DNA of 5,334 nt, from assembly GCA_003644825.1 (NCBI GenBank), contig QNDJ01000151.1:1-5334 (forward strand). The letters run 5' to 3'. Under the pieces are notes generated by a model. The model was given only the letters and a program-made list of their open reading frames with translations. It was not told the DNA's origin and searched no databases. The translations under genes and the position numbers were made by a program. This stretch comes from B21-G16 sp003644825 [NCBI: Candidatus Zhuqueibacterota bacterium]. Lineage in GTDB: Bacteria > SM23-31 > B21-G16. The stretch's first letter is position 1; every line of letters begins with the position of its first letter. This document shows positions 27-5,334 of the stretch, piece by piece.

Positions 27-1643
27 ATGGGTCAATCTAAAGATAAAATAAAAGTTTTTATAGAGGAATATAAGGTCAAAGATGTTCCTGCTAAACACCC
101 TCAATTATTTGAGTTAAAAACAATTATACCCGGTATAATGCTGGGTTTACTGGGGATAATAATAGGATTAGAACTTTTAACCAGAGTAGGTATAACGGCA
201 AACACCTCAATAATTGGTGCTATTATAGCTATAGGATTATCAAGAATTCCTTTATCCGTAACAAGTTCATTTCGTAATCTTTCCAGACAGAATCTATTGC
301 AAACAGTTATTTCAGGTGCAACATTTGGGGGTGCAAATGCAATTTTCCTGCCAATTGGAATTCTATGGTTGATAAGTAAAAGGGAACTCGTCCCGATTAT
401 GTTGTTGGGTGCTTTTCTTGGATTGATAATTGATGCCACGATACTTTATAGAATATTTGATTCCAGGATTTACCCTGCAGGTGGAACATGGCCTCCAGGT
501 GTAGCAACAGCCGAGTGTATAATAGCAGGAGATAAAGGTGGGAAAAGAGCAAAACTGCTAAGTGTGGGTGGTATTGCAGGAATAATTGGTCGTTTTGCGG
601 GTATTCCAATGGATATCTTCGGAGTATGCTGGATTGGAAATATATGGGCTCTAACTATGTTCGCTGCTGGTTTACTCATAAGGGGATATTCTATTACATT
701 ATTTAATGTTGATATTAACAAATTCTATTTACCTCACGGGGTAATGATTGGAGCCGGAGTTGTTGCAATGTTCCAAATAATAGCAGAAATCGCAAAAGAA
801 AATAAAAATTTTGATAAAAAAGAATTCACAATTAATGGAAAACAATTTGGCACAGGAATAGGAAGTGGTTTTATTGCATTTCTTGTAGCCGCACTTATTA
901 TTTCGGCAGTCTCGGGTATATACACTCAAATGTCCCCGGGTATGTTGTTCTTTTTTATAATATATGCAGGCATTTCAGCTCTTATTTCAGAACTAATAGT
1001 TGGAATATCTTCAATGCATGCTGGATGGTTTCCATCCTTTGCAACAACCCTTATATTTTTAACCGGGGGAATGTTAATAGGTTTCCCCCAGACACCATTA
1101 GCATTATTAACAGGATTTACCGCATCAACTGGACCAGCTTTCGCTGATATGGCTTACGACCTGAAGACCGGCTGGATACTCAGAGGAAATGGAAAATACA
1201 CCGAGTTCGAAAAACAGGGAAGAAAACAACAATACTTTGCAGAAATTTTAGGTTTTACCATTGCATTAATAGTAGTAACCATATTTTATAAAAATTACTT
1301 CAAAGGAGGGCTGTTTCCACCCGTTGACCGGGTATATATTGCAACTATTCAGGCGGGTACTTCTTCCGAAACTGCAAAATATCTTTTAATGTGGTCAATT
1401 CCTGGTGTTATTATACAACTTATAGGTGGCATATCTACACAAATCGGGATTCTTTTTGCTACAGGCTTATTGATTCACAACCCGATAGCAGGATGGACAG
1501 CCCTGGTCGCTCTCGCAGTGAGAGCAATAATTATCAAAATATATGGAAAACCTGCAGAAAACCCTATGTATGTTCTCGCTGGTGGATTCATAGCAGGCTC
1601 TGCTTTGTGTGGTTTTATTTCATCAACGTTGAAAATAAAATAA
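27..1643 (+). CDS. OPT/YSL-family oligopeptide-type transporter
   Basis: A 538-residue polytopic inner-membrane protein of the oligopeptide transporter (OPT) family, expected to import small peptides, peptide-like compounds or metal chelates by proton-coupled symport; the actual substrate cannot be read from sequence. The lysine-rich N-terminus (1-30) is followed by roughly 14-16 hydrophobic segments, the first at about 33-51 and the last at about 512-533. Family landmarks are visible: TWPPGVATAE followed by AGDKGGKRAKLL at about 154-178, matching the OPT FPEGTA-AEVLKAGEKG region; SELIVGISSMHAG at about 321-333, matching EIVG-I-SS; and AYDLKTGWIL at about 376-385 followed by RKQQYFAEILG, matching the QDLKTG-L...RKQQ-GE-IG signature. 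The length is near the short end for bacterial members but complete. The ATG at 27 is the first start after an in-frame TAA at 21-23, and the next in-frame Met (38) lies inside the first membrane segment, so the start is secure although no Shine-Dalgarno precedes it. It is the first gene of a three-gene unit with DUF1177 and AroM proteins. Confidence 0.9.
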   Translation: MGQSKDKIKVFIEEYKVKDVPAKHPQLFELKTIIPGIMLGLLGIIIGLELLTRVGITANTSIIGAIIAIGLSRIPLSVTSSFRNLSRQNLLQTVISGATFGGANAIFLPIGILWLISKRELVPIMLLGAFLGLIIDATILYRIFDSRIYPAGGTWPPGVATAECIIAGDKGGKRAKLLSVGGIAGIIGRFAGIPMDIFGVCWIGNIWALTMFAAGLLIRGYSITLFNVDINKFYLPHGVMIGAGVVAMFQIIAEIAKENKNFDKKEFTINGKQFGTGIGSGFIAFLVAALIISAVSGIYTQMSPGMLFFFIIYAGISALISELIVGISSMHAGWFPSFATTLIFLTGGMLIGFPQTPLALLTGFTASTGPAFADMAYDLKTGWILRGNGKYTEFEKQGRKQQYFAEILGFTIALIVVTIFYKNYFKGGLFPPVDRVYIATIQAGTSSETAKYLLMWSIPGVIIQLIGGISTQIGILFATGLLIHNPIAGWTALVALAVRAIIIKIYGKPAENPMYVLAGGFIAGSALCGFISSTLKIK

Positions 1644-1659
1644 AAATATGGAGTAAAAA

Positions 1660-2595
1660 ATGTTAAAACAAATAATAGAAATTTATGAACTCCTTGATGA
1701 TTCGAAAATATCCGGAATAAAAGTGGCTGAATTCCTCAAAAAAAGAGGACTAACAAAAATCAAAGTAAACAAAATTAACAAAAGAGAAGGTTCAACAGAT
1801 TTTATCAAGATAATTATACAGGGAACCTCCGGAAAACAAAAAAATGGAAATGCTCCTACTCTGGGTATCATAGGCAGGCTTGGTGGTATAGGCGCCAGAC
1901 CCGAAAAAATTGGTCTGGTATCAGATGCTGACGGTGCCATTACTGCGTTATCCTGTGCATTAAAGCTCGCTGATATGCAGATAAAAGGAGACATACTCAA
2001 AGGTGATGTAATTATCGCAACTCATATTTGCCCGAACTCACCGATTGAACCTCATGAACCTGTTCCTTTTATGGGTTCACCTGTAAATATAGATGAAATG
2101 AACAGATATGAAGTAGACCCTGAAATGGATGCCATTTTATCCATTGATACAACAAAAGGAAACAGAATAATAAACTATAGAGGTTTTGCAATTACTCCGA
2201 CTGTAAGAGAAGGTTATATTCTCAGAATAAGTGAAGACCTGTTAAACATTATGGAATGGACTACAGGTAAACTTCCCCGGGTTCTACCTGTAACAACCCA
2301 GGATATTACACCTTATGGTAATGGTCTTTTTCACCTGAACAGTATAATGCAGCCCTGTACCGTAACGAGCTCACCTGTTGTAGGGGTTGCAATAACATCT
2401 GAAACTGCCGTCCCTGGCTGTGGAACAGGGGCAAACCATATAATCGATATTGAAGAAGCAGGAAGATTCTGCATTGAAGTCGCAAAAGCATTCTCCGAAA
2501 AAAAATGTAAATTCTATGACGAAAACGAGTTCAATTCAATTTTAAAACTTTACGGTTCAATGAGTATTTTACAGACAAAAGGAAATAACAAATGA
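1660..2595 (+). CDS. DUF1177-family protein, uncharacterised
   Basis: A 311-residue soluble protein without signal peptide or membrane segments, recognised as DUF1177 from its conserved core; no biochemical function is established. The N-terminal 1-60 is a lysine-rich helical and strand segment. The core has GIIGRLGGIGARPEKIGLVSD at about 69-89, the SDADG motif at 88-92 followed by a helix, then THICPNSPIEPHEPVPFMGS at 121-140, rich in possible ligands (H122, C124, E130, H132, E133). SIDTTKGN follows at 161-168, and a TSETAVPGCGTGANHI segment near the C-terminus contains E248, C254 and H260. The layout of an acidic DxDG motif, a helix and a GDV-I-ATH strand is reminiscent of M20/M42-type metallopeptidases, but this is only inference. 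GGAG at 1650-1653, six bases before the ATG, supports the start. The gene begins 16 bases after the transporter stop and overlaps aroM by four bases, so all three are likely one operon. Confidence 0.88.
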   Translation: MLKQIIEIYELLDDSKISGIKVAEFLKKRGLTKIKVNKINKREGSTDFIKIIIQGTSGKQKNGNAPTLGIIGRLGGIGARPEKIGLVSDADGAITALSCALKLADMQIKGDILKGDVIIATHICPNSPIEPHEPVPFMGSPVNIDEMNRYEVDPEMDAILSIDTTKGNRIINYRGFAITPTVREGYILRISEDLLNIMEWTTGKLPRVLPVTTQDITPYGNGLFHLNSIMQPCTVTSSPVVGVAITSETAVPGCGTGANHIIDIEEAGRFCIEVAKAFSEKKCKFYDENEFNSILKLYGSMSILQTKGNNK

Positions 2596-3263
2596 AAATC
2601 GGTGCAATAACAATAGGACAATCTCCAAGAGATGATATTATCCCAGAAATTCGAGATATCTTAACTCAGAATATCAAGATAATTGAGAAAGGAGTTCTGG
2701 ATGGAATTTCTTCTGAAGATATAAAAAATTTTTATCCAGACAAAACAGATTTTCCTATAGTAACAAGATTGAAGAATGGAACAGAAGTTAAAGTAGCAAG
2801 AAAAAAGATTGTTCCCGGATTAAAAAACTGCATCTCTGAACTCGAAAAAGATGAAGTTGATGTAATAGTACTTCTGTGTACCGGTGAATTCCCCGAAATT
2901 AAATCTGAAAAAATATTGCTGGAACCTCATAAAATAATGGTTAATATTGTCAGAAGCATTAAAGAAAAAGGAAAACTATGCATAATAGTGCCTTCTTCTG
3001 ACCAGATTTCATTAATAAATAAAAGATGGAAACGCATAAGTCCAGATATTATTTCAATACCATTTTCCCCATATTCAGGAAAAGATGATGAAATTATAAA
3101 AAAAGCAGAAAAAATAGTTGAATTGAATGTCGATTTAATAATCCTTGACTGTATAGGTTTTACAAGGAAAATAAAATCTATTCTAAGAGATATTACAGGC
3201 AAACCTGTCCTTTTACCAAGAACAATTATCGCAAGAATATTGCAGGAATTAATAGAAATTTGA
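2592..3263 (+). CDS. aroM: AroM-family protein
   Basis: A 223-residue cytoplasmic protein of the AroM family, close to the roughly 225 residues of the E. coli namesake, which sits beside aroL in the TyrR regulon but has no proven activity. The family is recognised from the N-terminal GAITIGQSPRDDIIPEI (4-20), the central DVIVLLCTGEFPE (90-102), EPHKIM (111-116) and the C-terminal DLIILDCIGF (181-190) followed by PVLLPRTIIAR. These strands place two cysteines, C96 and C187, in the positions where Asp/Glu-racemase-fold enzymes carry their catalytic pair, so a racemase- or decarboxylase-like role is possible; this is inference. The ATG overlaps the DUF1177 stop as ATGA, and AAAGGA at 2578-2583 gives a modest Shine-Dalgarno eight bases upstream, indicating translational coupling. 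No shikimate-pathway gene is next to it, so the name should not be taken to mean aromatic biosynthesis here. The TGA stop lies within a terminator-like hairpin. Confidence 0.9.
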   Translation: MKIGAITIGQSPRDDIIPEIRDILTQNIKIIEKGVLDGISSEDIKNFYPDKTDFPIVTRLKNGTEVKVARKKIVPGLKNCISELEKDEVDVIVLLCTGEFPEIKSEKILLEPHKIMVNIVRSIKEKGKLCIIVPSSDQISLINKRWKRISPDIISIPFSPYSGKDDEIIKKAEKIVELNVDLIILDCIGFTRKIKSILRDITGKPVLLPRTIIARILQELIEI

Positions 3264-3287: not shown

Positions 3288-3315
3288 TATGAAACCTTAA
3301 ACAGTGGTAAATCCG

Positions 3316-4977
3316 ATGATTAATTCCATTCCTTTTCCATCAAGAAAAATTTTTGTTTTATTTCTATCAGCTTTAATTATTCTGATAGGTATTAAATGTT
3401 CCAGAATTAATAAATCGGAGTATTTGGTAGTCGGGGGAACTATACTAACAATGAACCCCAACAAACCAGAAGCTGAAGCAATGATTGTTCGTGATGGTAA
3501 AATTGAGGCTGTCGGTTCCATGGCAGAACTTGAAGAGAAATACCCGGATGCCAATGTTTATAATATTGAAGGAAGAACAATACTACCCGGATTTATTGAT
3601 TCTCATACACATGTTTATGAATTAGGATACCAGCATAGAAAAGCTGACCTTATCGGTGTCAAAACAGTAAAAGAAATGGTTGAACGCCTCAAAAAATTTT
3701 ACCATAAAAAACCACAGGGAAAATGGCTTATTGGGTATGGCTGGGATGAGGGAGAATGGGCATCCAGAGGTTATCCTGATAGAGCAGAACTGGATAGAGC
3801 ATTTCCAGAAAATCCTGTTTGTCTGGAATCTTTACATGGGTTTGCTGGTTTCTACAATGCCCGTGCCCTTGAAATTGCAGGAATAAATGCCAATACTCCT
3901 GACCCTGAAGCCGGAAAAATTTTGAGAAGAAAAAACGGTGAACCAACCGGAGTATTACTCACCGAAGCTCAGGAACTCGTTAACAAACATATTCCTCCAG
4001 AACCATTGGAAGAAATGAAAAAATCTATTCTATTGGGGCTGAACACAATGGCAAAAGAGGGAGTTACATCAATCCACGAGGCAGGTACGGATTCGAAGAT
4101 GGTTAAAGCATTCAGGGAACTCGCTAAAGAAAAAAAACTACCAATACGAGTCTATGGGATGTTAATCTGGTCAGATTCTACTCTAATTGACGAATGGTTT
4201 TCCAGAGGACCATTAATTGACCCGGATGCATTTTTCACCATCCGAACCATAAAAGTTTTTTACGATGGTTCTCTTGGTTCCCGGACTGCACTTCTAAGGA
4301 AACCATACTCGGATGAACCTGAAAATGCTCATATGATAGAGTATATAACACCTGAAGAATTGACCTATCTATCAAAACGTTCTGTGGAAAATGGGTTTCA
4401 GATTGCCGTTCATGCTATTGGCGATGAAGCAAATGAGCGAGTTTTAAGTACATTTGAATCTGTTCTAAAACCATATCCATTCCTCGATCACCGCTGGCGT
4501 ATTGAACACGCACAGGTAGTTTTACCGGATTATTTCAAACGTGCTTCCAAACTGGGAATTATATCCAGTATGCAACCCAGCCATGCTTTAGAAGACAAAG
4601 AATGGGCTGAAAATAGAGTCGGACCAGAAAGAATAAAATACGCTTACGCCTGGCGAAGTGTTCTGAATGCAGGGGGAATTCTACTGATGAATTCAGACCT
4701 TCCAGCGGTTCCCTGGAAGCCTGTATACACTCTTTATTTTGCTGTAACCAGAAAAGACCTCAACGGAAATCCACCGGAAGGATGGTACCCGGAACAGGCT
4801 ATTACTGTAGATGAAGCACTGTATGCTATGACTGTAGCAGGGGCTTACGCTTCATTTCAGGAAAACAAGCTCGGCTCTCTTTCACCCGGTAAATTTGCAG
4901 ATTTCGTTGAACTGGATAAAAATCCAAAAAAGGTAAAACCCGAAAAATTAAAAAACATTAAAGCAATTAAAACCTAG
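3316..4977 (+). CDS. Exported or membrane-anchored amidohydrolase, YtcJ-like (amidohydrolase_3)
   Basis: A metal-dependent hydrolase of the amidohydrolase superfamily, YtcJ/N-substituted-formamide-deformylase-like group, expected to cleave an amide-type bond; the substrate is unknown. From the ATG at 3316 it has 553 residues. Charged R10-K11 precede a hydrophobic stretch (about 12-26) ending at C28, giving an export signal or anchor, though the residues before C28 (G-I-K) do not match a normal lipobox. Then come the N-terminal beta-sandwich start (VVGGTILTMN), the metal-binding HTH (H97, H99) in PGFIDSHTH, GYGWDEGEW near 140-148, KVFYDGSLGSRTALL with K313, AVHAIGDEAN with H366, WRIEHAQ with H398 and NSDLPA with D461, so the catalytic set looks complete. 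The C-terminal GSLSPGKFADFVELDKNP is typical, but the frame stops at TAG where the family has one more strand (see 4975-5010). A GTG at 3304 in the same frame is an alternative start giving 557 residues; neither start has a good Shine-Dalgarno. It lies 52 bases after aroM, so it may belong to the same pathway or be independent. Confidence 0.87.
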   Translation: MINSIPFPSRKIFVLFLSALIILIGIKCSRINKSEYLVVGGTILTMNPNKPEAEAMIVRDGKIEAVGSMAELEEKYPDANVYNIEGRTILPGFIDSHTHVYELGYQHRKADLIGVKTVKEMVERLKKFYHKKPQGKWLIGYGWDEGEWASRGYPDRAELDRAFPENPVCLESLHGFAGFYNARALEIAGINANTPDPEAGKILRRKNGEPTGVLLTEAQELVNKHIPPEPLEEMKKSILLGLNTMAKEGVTSIHEAGTDSKMVKAFRELAKEKKLPIRVYGMLIWSDSTLIDEWFSRGPLIDPDAFFTIRTIKVFYDGSLGSRTALLRKPYSDEPENAHMIEYITPEELTYLSKRSVENGFQIAVHAIGDEANERVLSTFESVLKPYPFLDHRWRIEHAQVVLPDYFKRASKLGIISSMQPSHALEDKEWAENRVGPERIKYAYAWRSVLNAGGILLMNSDLPAVPWKPVYTLYFAVTRKDLNGNPPEGWYPEQAITVDEALYAMTVAGAYASFQENKLGSLSPGKFADFVELDKNPKKVKPEKLKNIKAIKT

Positions 4978-5010
4978 GTAGCAGGCAAAATAGTCGCAGA
5001 AAACAAATAA
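4975..5010 (+). other. In-frame TAG followed by the expected C-terminal tail of the amidohydrolase
   Basis: The amidohydrolase frame ends ...IKAIKT then TAG (4975-4977). The same frame continues for ten codons, VAGKIVAENK, to TAA at 5008-5010, followed at once by a second TAA (5011-5013). Members of this family usually end with a strand of the form T-x-V-x-G-K-x-V-x-E after PGK-ADFVVLD, so the tail is what the intact protein would carry, with TAG in place of one hydrophobic or aromatic residue. One base change from TGG or TTG would explain it. The other three genes end in TAA, TGA and TGA, so they neither support nor exclude reassignment of TAG. The TAG sits in the eight-base palindrome ACCTAGGT. 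Confidence 0.7.
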
Positions 5011-5077
5011 TAAAACCAATTAACTGAGACTATATTGACCTCTAAAAAAGCCCATTTACCTGTAATTATGTATGATG

Positions 5078-5150
5078 AACAATTAAACCAATCTTTACAA
5101 ATTAATATCTGAAAAAGATTGTTTTATGACTTTCAAAAAACTTAATTGTT
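5078..5150 (+). repeat. Nested perfect inverted repeats, possible terminator or structured 3' RNA
   Basis: AACAATTAA (5078-5086) pairs perfectly with TTAATTGTT (5142-5150). Inside it CAATCTTT (5089-5096) pairs perfectly with AAAGATTG (5114-5121), which is followed by TTTT. The inner hairpin has a 17-base loop. The two stems are compatible in one folded RNA, about 70 bases after the last amidohydrolase stop, so the inner hairpin with its T run could act as the terminator. A second CAATTAA at 5017-5023 could compete for the distal TTAATTG arm. Confidence 0.4.
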
Positions 5151-5206
5151 ATATTATTTTAAAATCTATAAACTAATTTAACGATGAAGTTTCTGTAAAA
5201 TGAAGT

Positions 5207-5234
5207 GGATTGTCGAACTCACGCTCCAATGACA
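5207..5234. repeat. Possible degenerate copy of a widespread interspersed hairpin repeat
   Basis: Read on the minus strand, the segment begins TGTCATT, continues with GAGCGTGAG and ends CGACAATCC. This follows the pattern TGTCATT-c-GAGCG-aAG-cga-AATCC of short interspersed repeats that, from memory, occur in many bacterial genomes. It is locally richer in G and C than its surroundings and carries complementary ends (ATTGTC at 5209-5214 with GACAAT at 5231-5236). One copy within this window cannot prove that it is a repeat. Confidence 0.35.
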
Positions 5235-5334
5235 ATAAAAATTCTGACATTTTTCTTTAATAATATTCGGAGGAAAATTAAGATAAATAACTCCTGATTA
5301 CTTAATTCGTAATTACCTGATTTAAATATATAAC

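What the first reader, a model, noticed from the sequence alone, without database searches (positions are those of the whole stretch)
4975..5010. Amber stop interrupts the conserved C-terminus of the amidohydrolase
The ten sense codons after the TAG read VAGKIVAENK, which fits the terminal strand normal for this family, and tandem TAA stops follow. A true end at the TAG would leave the C-terminal beta-sandwich without its last strand. The options are a recent nonsense mutation, amber read-through, reassigned UAG in this organism or a sequencing or assembly error. The TAG lies inside the palindrome ACCTAGGT.
Basis: partly seen in the sequence, partly recalled or inferred. Interest (0 to 1): 0.6.

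Follow-up and report, generated by a model that had tools for sequence, protein, structure and literature searches.

The report
Late stop codon truncates one amidohydrolase
In an uncultured bacterium, one predicted metal-dependent enzyme gene carries a stop codon about ten codons before the family's usual end, most likely an ordinary late nonsense mutation (or a consensus error) and not a changed genetic code.

Summary
The 557-codon Amidohydro_3 (YtcJ-like) gene ends at TAG 4975-4977, and the next ten codons, VAGKIVAENK before TAATAA, continue the family's last two strands without a gap. Of 70 homologues, 67 have a residue at the TAG column. The tail raises a C-terminal profile score from 31.4 to 45.1 bits, reached by 0 of 500 shuffled tails (best 44.0) and 0 of 188 other post-stop tails. 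Genome-wide recoding is unlikely: TAG ends 79 of 468 sampled ORFs, RF1 is intact, no PylS passes its cut-off, and none of 37 other TAG-ended ORFs shows a Pfam best stretch crossing its TAG. Best reading: a nonsense change confined to this gene that yields a C-terminally clipped protein. A consensus error in this fragmented genome cannot be excluded without reads. Read-through is not excluded: an imperfect hairpin begins 1 nt after the TAG, but hairpins after stop codons are not rare in this genome (22 of 458 at z -4 or below). Interest is low.

The parts
3304..4974 (+). Amidohydro_3 / YtcJ-like metal-dependent amidohydrolase, 557 codons before the TAG; an in-frame ATG at 3316 is an alternative start
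   Evidence: the ORF listing; Pfam PF07969 353.8 bits; PDB relatives 3igh, 3icj
4975..4977 (+). TAG codon at the column where 67 of 70 homologues have a residue (28 Ile, 21 Met, 8 Val, 4 Leu, others fewer)
4978..5007 (+). ten sense codons VAGKIVAENK that match the family's last strands
   Evidence: profile gain 13.7 bits, 0 of 500 shuffles, 0 of 188 controls; in leave-one-out 21 of 67 homologues gain no more than this
5008..5013 (+). tandem TAA TAA, close to the usual family end point
   Evidence: end positions of homologues
4979..5044 (+). imperfect RNA hairpin of 18 pairs, arms 4979-4999 and 5024-5044, loop of 24 nt holding TAATAA; not a canonical intrinsic terminator
   Evidence: z -4.26, 0 of 200 shuffles; no terminator-like site in the scan of 4900-5334; 22 of 458 post-stop windows of this genome reach z -4, this one included

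Best explanation
A nonsense change, probably recent, in one gene of this organism. UAG is read by the organism's RF1 as stop, so the ribosome releases a 557-residue amidohydrolase that lacks the end of strand 554-559 and all of strand 562-566 of the C-terminal beta-sandwich. The conserved active-site columns are upstream, so the product may keep its active site but is probably less stable, or the gene is in an early stage of decay. Shown: the TAG, the conserved tail, TAG used as a normal stop, and no second gene with the same pattern in the part of the genome tested. Inferred: that the change is real in the population, that it is recent, and its effect on stability.
For: The tail is a normal-quality family end: leave-one-out gain 13.7 bits against a homologue median of 16.6, with 21 of 67 homologues gaining no more, so it has not visibly decayed. 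TAG ends 79 of 468 ORFs in 638,839 sampled bases; among these are ORFs matching ribosomal S7, S8, L2 and a threonyl-tRNA-synthetase-like domain set, whose domains end before the TAG. RF1 scores 548.9 bits, over its cut-off of 423.25. Of 37 other TAG-ended ORFs with at least 10 further codons, 0 have a Pfam best stretch that crosses the TAG (3 of 37 have no Pfam match); of 20 TAA/TGA controls, 0 (3 of 20 without match). The model puts strands at 554-559 and 562-566, in blocks of pLDDT 97 and 92. In 49 of 50 listed PDB alignments the last aligned model residue is 564 or later. Shorter natural ends exist (L013, same class), so a clipped end can occur.
Against: No reads or second strain were available, so a consensus error is not excluded. 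Only 4 of 67 homologue codons at this column lie one substitution from TAG (26 need two, 37 three), which makes a one-step origin a little less expected, though the ancestral codon here is unknown. The stretch just before the TAG scores lower than in most homologues (32.3 bits against a median of 42.3; 13 of 67 score no more), which could mean relaxed constraint before the TAG arose. A hairpin begins 1 nt after the TAG, which could hint at a functional 3' end or at read-through.
Confidence: 0.55

Rival explanations
1. Sequencing or consensus error in a fragmented genome assembly: the real gene has a sense codon and the usual end at TAATAA.
For: The genome is 493 contigs, 83.63% complete. The tail is undecayed, as an error would predict.
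Against: Among 57 other tested stops (37 TAG, 20 TAA/TGA; 6 of 57 without a Pfam match) no comparable interrupted domain was seen, so errors of this kind are not frequent here. No read data were examined.
Confidence: 0.3
2. Gene-specific UAG read-through: most ribosomes stop at the TAG, some insert an amino acid and make the full-length protein; the adjacent hairpin pauses the ribosome or favours read-through.
For: The tail keeps family-like sequence. A hairpin of 18 pairs begins 1 nt after the TAG (z -4.26). A hairpin that encloses a stop codon with z at most -3 and at least 12 enclosing pairs is rare: 2 of 463 ORF ends, one of them this one with TAATAA taken as the stop.
Against: Strong hairpins after stop codons are not rare here: 22 of 458 windows with z at most -4, this one included, and 14 of the 15 that rank above it are more stable. 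The enclosing-hairpin test was thought of after the fold was seen. None of 70 homologues has a TAG at this column: 67 have sense codons and the other 3 end earlier at TAA, so the signal is not conserved. RF1 is intact.
Confidence: 0.09
3. Long-standing, tolerated truncation: the TAG is the functional end and the hairpin is its 3'-end element.
For: 3 of 70 homologues end earlier still, one of them in the same class (L013, no tail seen in any of three frames). The Pyrococcus relative 3icj aligns only to model residue 543. The hairpin sits where post-stop hairpins of other genes sit.
Against: The post-TAG codons score like a normal family end, which an old untranslated stretch should have lost.
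Confidence: 0.05
4. UAG is reassigned genome-wide, or decoded as pyrrolysine.
For: None beyond this one codon; only 13 tRNA genes are assembled, so a suppressor tRNA could be missing.
Against: TAG is a regular stop, also of ORFs matching ribosomal proteins. RF1 is present. The best PylS score is 25.5 bits against a cut-off of 178.15. No CTA anticodon among the 13 tRNAs and no credible CUA tRNA by pattern. The MttB homologue has no TAG inside its match, only a TAA at its N-terminal edge.
Confidence: 0.01

Closest known systems
Nonsense-truncated genes / early pseudogenes in bacterial genomes (general knowledge, recalled)
   Same: a single in-frame stop near the end of an otherwise intact conserved gene, with the post-stop codons still family-like
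   Different: origin (mutation or consensus error) is not shown here, for lack of reads
Amidohydro_3 (PF07969) / YtcJ-like metal-dependent hydrolases, PDB 3igh and 3icj
   Same: domain match, fold (VIA Z 49.8 and 47.2), invariant H101, H103, H370, H402, D465 (their metal role is recalled, not tested)
   Different: this copy stops in the penultimate strand; 67 of 70 aligned homologues continue past that column
Stop-codon reassignment in bacteria (UGA to Trp or Gly) and UAG as pyrrolysine (the latter recalled)
   Same: an in-frame stop inside a conserved domain
   Different: one gene only in the part tested; UAG used as a normal stop; RF1 present; PylS not found above cut-off. PMC8629427 (passages seen) says all bacterial reassignments known before it were of UGA, and blames pseudogenes for false stop-codon inferences in some yeasts

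Membership tests
Amidohydro_3 / YtcJ-like amidohydrolase | Pfam PF07969 above gathering score over nearly the full profile | tested here: met
   353.8 bits (cut-off 29.7), profile 2-464 of 472; 2-472 with the TAG as X
Amidohydro_3 / YtcJ-like amidohydrolase | conserved active-site columns (His-x-His, His, His, Asp) | tested here: met
   H101, H103, H370, H402 and D465 invariant in 27 aligned sequences; metal-binding role recalled, not tested
Amidohydro_3 / YtcJ-like amidohydrolase | terminal T-x-V-x-G-K strand pair (usual, not strictly defining: absent in 3 of 70 homologues) | tested here: inconclusive
   encoded, but after the TAG, so absent from the product if UAG terminates
Genome-wide UAG reassignment | loss or change of RF1 | tested here: not met
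   RF1 match 548.9 bits over cut-off, no stop inside
Genome-wide UAG reassignment | many conserved-frame TAG codons | tested here: not met
   0 of 37 other TAG-ended ORFs have a Pfam best stretch across the TAG, in a sample of 638,839 of 2,483,551 bases
Pyrrolysine system | PylS and tRNA-Pyl (CUA) | tested here: inconclusive
   no PylS above cut-off, no CUA tRNA among 13; genome 83.63% complete
Programmed stop read-through | stop codon and context conserved among relatives | tested here: not met
   0 of 70 homologues carry TAG at the column; no close relative is held
Programmed stop read-through | extended protein product | not testable with these tools
   no proteomics or reporter data
Late nonsense mutation | stop present in reads and absent from close relatives | not testable with these tools
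   no reads; the five other genomes of the phylum held are of the same class only; best homologue segment 46% identical

The most novel reading that the evidence does not exclude
A programmed, gene-specific UAG read-through: the hairpin that begins 1 nt after the TAG tunes how much full-length, stable amidohydrolase is made relative to a clipped form, using an ordinary near-cognate tRNA in a bacterium with a standard code.
Probability: 0.05. Interest if true: 0.5.

Novelty: new member of a known kind. Interest (0 to 1): 0.15.

Why it matters
Mostly as a caution. A single stop inside a conserved domain of a fragmented genome can look like recoding, but the genome's own stop usage, release factor and other TAG-ended genes argue against that quickly. 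If the read-through reading were true, it would be a bacterial chromosomal case in which the extension completes a folded domain, which I would expect to be uncommon (own judgement, not searched in depth).

Tried and rejected
Palindrome ACCTAGGT: present once, no role found. RNA families in the window: none at gathering threshold. Intrinsic terminator in 4900-5334: none by pattern. tRNA in the window: none. Another copy of the junction in viral contigs: none, a weak test for a bacterial gene. The MttB hit with one TAA was looked at for recoding: the TAA sits at the N-terminal edge of the match and the frame is open after it. The nine frames of at least 60 codons after other TAGs were looked at as possible read-through: each holds a Pfam domain of a separate gene in phase (PNPase, GMP synthase, Mur ligase, POTRA, RmuC, a transport permease, IF3, NusG_II, S19). 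L013, L024 and L032, which end before the TAG column, were checked for a frameshifted tail in three frames over about 150 bases: none seen. A sequence search of the last 102 residues against the PDB gave no alignment reaching the post-TAG tail among the five printed alignments, and none of the ten listed matches covers it. Papers: searches (listings with titles and starts of abstracts) showed no report of this stop or of read-through in this family; that is no proof of absence. From PMC8629427 I saw passages only.

Limits of the Pfam crossing test: only the best stretch per family is shown; ORFs come from a simple longest-ORF pick, not a gene caller; the 20 TAA/TGA controls are 20 of 107 candidates, taken from the 24 with the highest coding score (two window ORFs and two others left out). 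The 3igh alignment range reaches residue 567, but the sequence match to 3igh ends at query residue 545 with only 8 residues of that chain left, so 3igh may have little of the last strands.

Full report
Observation. It carries four genes in a row: an OPT-type transporter (27-1643), DUF1177 (1660-2595), AroM (2592-3263) and an Amidohydro_3 amidohydrolase (3304-4977). The last ends at TAG 4975-4977, ten codons before TAATAA.

Is the tail coding? With the TAG read as X, the Pfam match runs from profile position 2 to 472 of 472 instead of to 464, and gains 11.3 bits. I aligned 70 distinct homologues, two of them paralogues from the same genome. At the TAG column 67 of 70 have a residue (28 I, 21 M, 8 V, 4 L, others fewer). 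The Thr before it is shared by 58 of 70, and the Gly three columns later by all 67. A C-terminal profile built without the window scores 31.4 bits for the truncated end and 45.1 with the tail; 0 of 500 shuffled tails (best 44.0) and 0 of 188 post-stop tails from the same genome (best 36.5) reach that. In a leave-one-out run the tail gains 13.7 bits against a homologue median of 16.6, and 21 of 67 homologues gain no more. So the tail is a normal family end. The stretch just before the TAG scores 32.3 against a median of 42.3, with 13 of 67 homologues no higher, so that part is rather divergent.

Exceptions. L013, L024 and L032 end before the TAG column, each at a TAA, and show no frameshifted tail; L013 is from the same class. 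L010 ends directly after the motif's GK. Among 50 listed PDB alignments, the Pyrococcus furiosus relative 3icj stops at model residue 543 and the other 49 reach 564 or later; for 3igh the sequence match ends at residue 545 with 8 residues of the chain left, so the last strands may be short or different in that pair of archaeal proteins.

Structure. An AlphaFold2 model of the read-through protein, with an arbitrary Leu at the TAG and 27 aligned sequences, has mean pLDDT 88.6. Its last elements are strands 554-559 and 562-566, in blocks of pLDDT 97 and 92. The TAG is residue 558. Stopping there cuts the first of these strands near its end and removes the second. The invariant columns H101, H103, H370, H402 and D465 lie upstream; that they bind metal is recalled knowledge of the superfamily.

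Is UAG recoded in this genome? In 60 stretches plus the window (638,839 bases), a simple ORF pick gave 468 ORFs of at least 100 codons: 276 end in TAA, 113 in TGA and 79 in TAG. Frames after TAG are about as open as frames after TAA: medians 8 and 7 codons, and 9 of 78 against 38 of 272 with at least 60 codons. All nine long ones after TAG hold a Pfam domain of a separate gene in phase. I scanned all 37 other TAG-ended ORFs of the sample with at least 10 further codons, read through as X: no Pfam best stretch crosses the TAG; 3 of 37 have no match. Among them are ORFs matching ribosomal S7, S8 and L2 and a threonyl-tRNA-synthetase-like set of domains. Of 20 TAA/TGA controls chosen for coding-like tails out of 107, none crosses; 3 of 20 have no match. 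RF1 is intact (548.9 bits). PylS is not found above cut-off (25.5 bits against 178.15; the same search gives hits in 13 of 14 control genomes, 1 of them over the cut-off). The 13 assembled tRNAs include none with anticodon CTA; a pattern for such a tRNA gave 6 matches against 12 for its reversed control, two of the 6 inside the tRNA-Glu and tRNA-Arg genes of C315. The tRNA set is clearly incomplete, so its silence is weak, but the stop usage and RF1 are strong.

Origin. Only 4 of 67 homologue codons at the column are one substitution from TAG, 26 need two and 37 three; the ancestral codon here is unknown. The nearest homologue is 46% identical in its best segment (L034), and the five other genomes of the phylum that are held are of the same class only, so no close comparison is possible. 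Real mutation and consensus error cannot be separated here. I favour a real change because no second interrupted gene appeared among 57 tested stops (6 of them without a Pfam match).

The hairpin. The 83 bases after the TAG fold into an imperfect hairpin of 18 pairs (arms 4979-4999 and 5024-5044), z -4.26, 0 of 200 shuffles. This would be striking alone, but 22 of 458 post-stop windows in this genome have z of -4 or less, this one among them, against 0 of 422 mid-gene windows, and 14 of the 15 that rank above it have lower energies. A hairpin enclosing the stop, as this one does if TAATAA is the end, is rarer (2 of 463 with z at most -3 and at least 12 enclosing pairs, this one included). That test was made after the fold was seen. 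I take it as a hint that keeps read-through or a functional 3' end open, no more.

Verdict. The genome-wide recoding readings fail. What is left is an ordinary late nonsense change, or an error in the consensus, with gene-specific read-through as an outside chance.

Noticed in passing
window 27-3263: An OPT-type transporter gene is followed by DUF1177 and AroM. In a genome of the same class (L159) a DUF1177 gene again lies near an OPT-like gene, with a 225-aa protein that looks like an Asp/Glu racemase between them (both by eye, not searched); no amidohydrolase of this kind is seen on that contig, which ends in the OPT-like gene.
   Followed up: partly
window 4979-5044: Imperfect hairpin starting 1 nt after the TAG, with the 5' arm in the post-TAG codons and TAATAA in the loop.
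   Followed up: partly
L013 800-2410 (+): A same-class amidohydrolase ends at IFELV-TAA, before the TAG column, with no tail in any of three frames: a natural short version, or another damaged end.
   Followed up: partly
window 3304-3402: The amidohydrolase has an N-terminal hydrophobic helix (residues 14-32 in the model) that ends in Cys32, so it may be exported; the Cys is not in a canonical lipobox (by eye, motif recalled).
   Followed up: no
G029:C144:13510-15102 (-): A distant relative's amidohydrolase match has one in-frame TAG inside the match; not examined.
   Followed up: no
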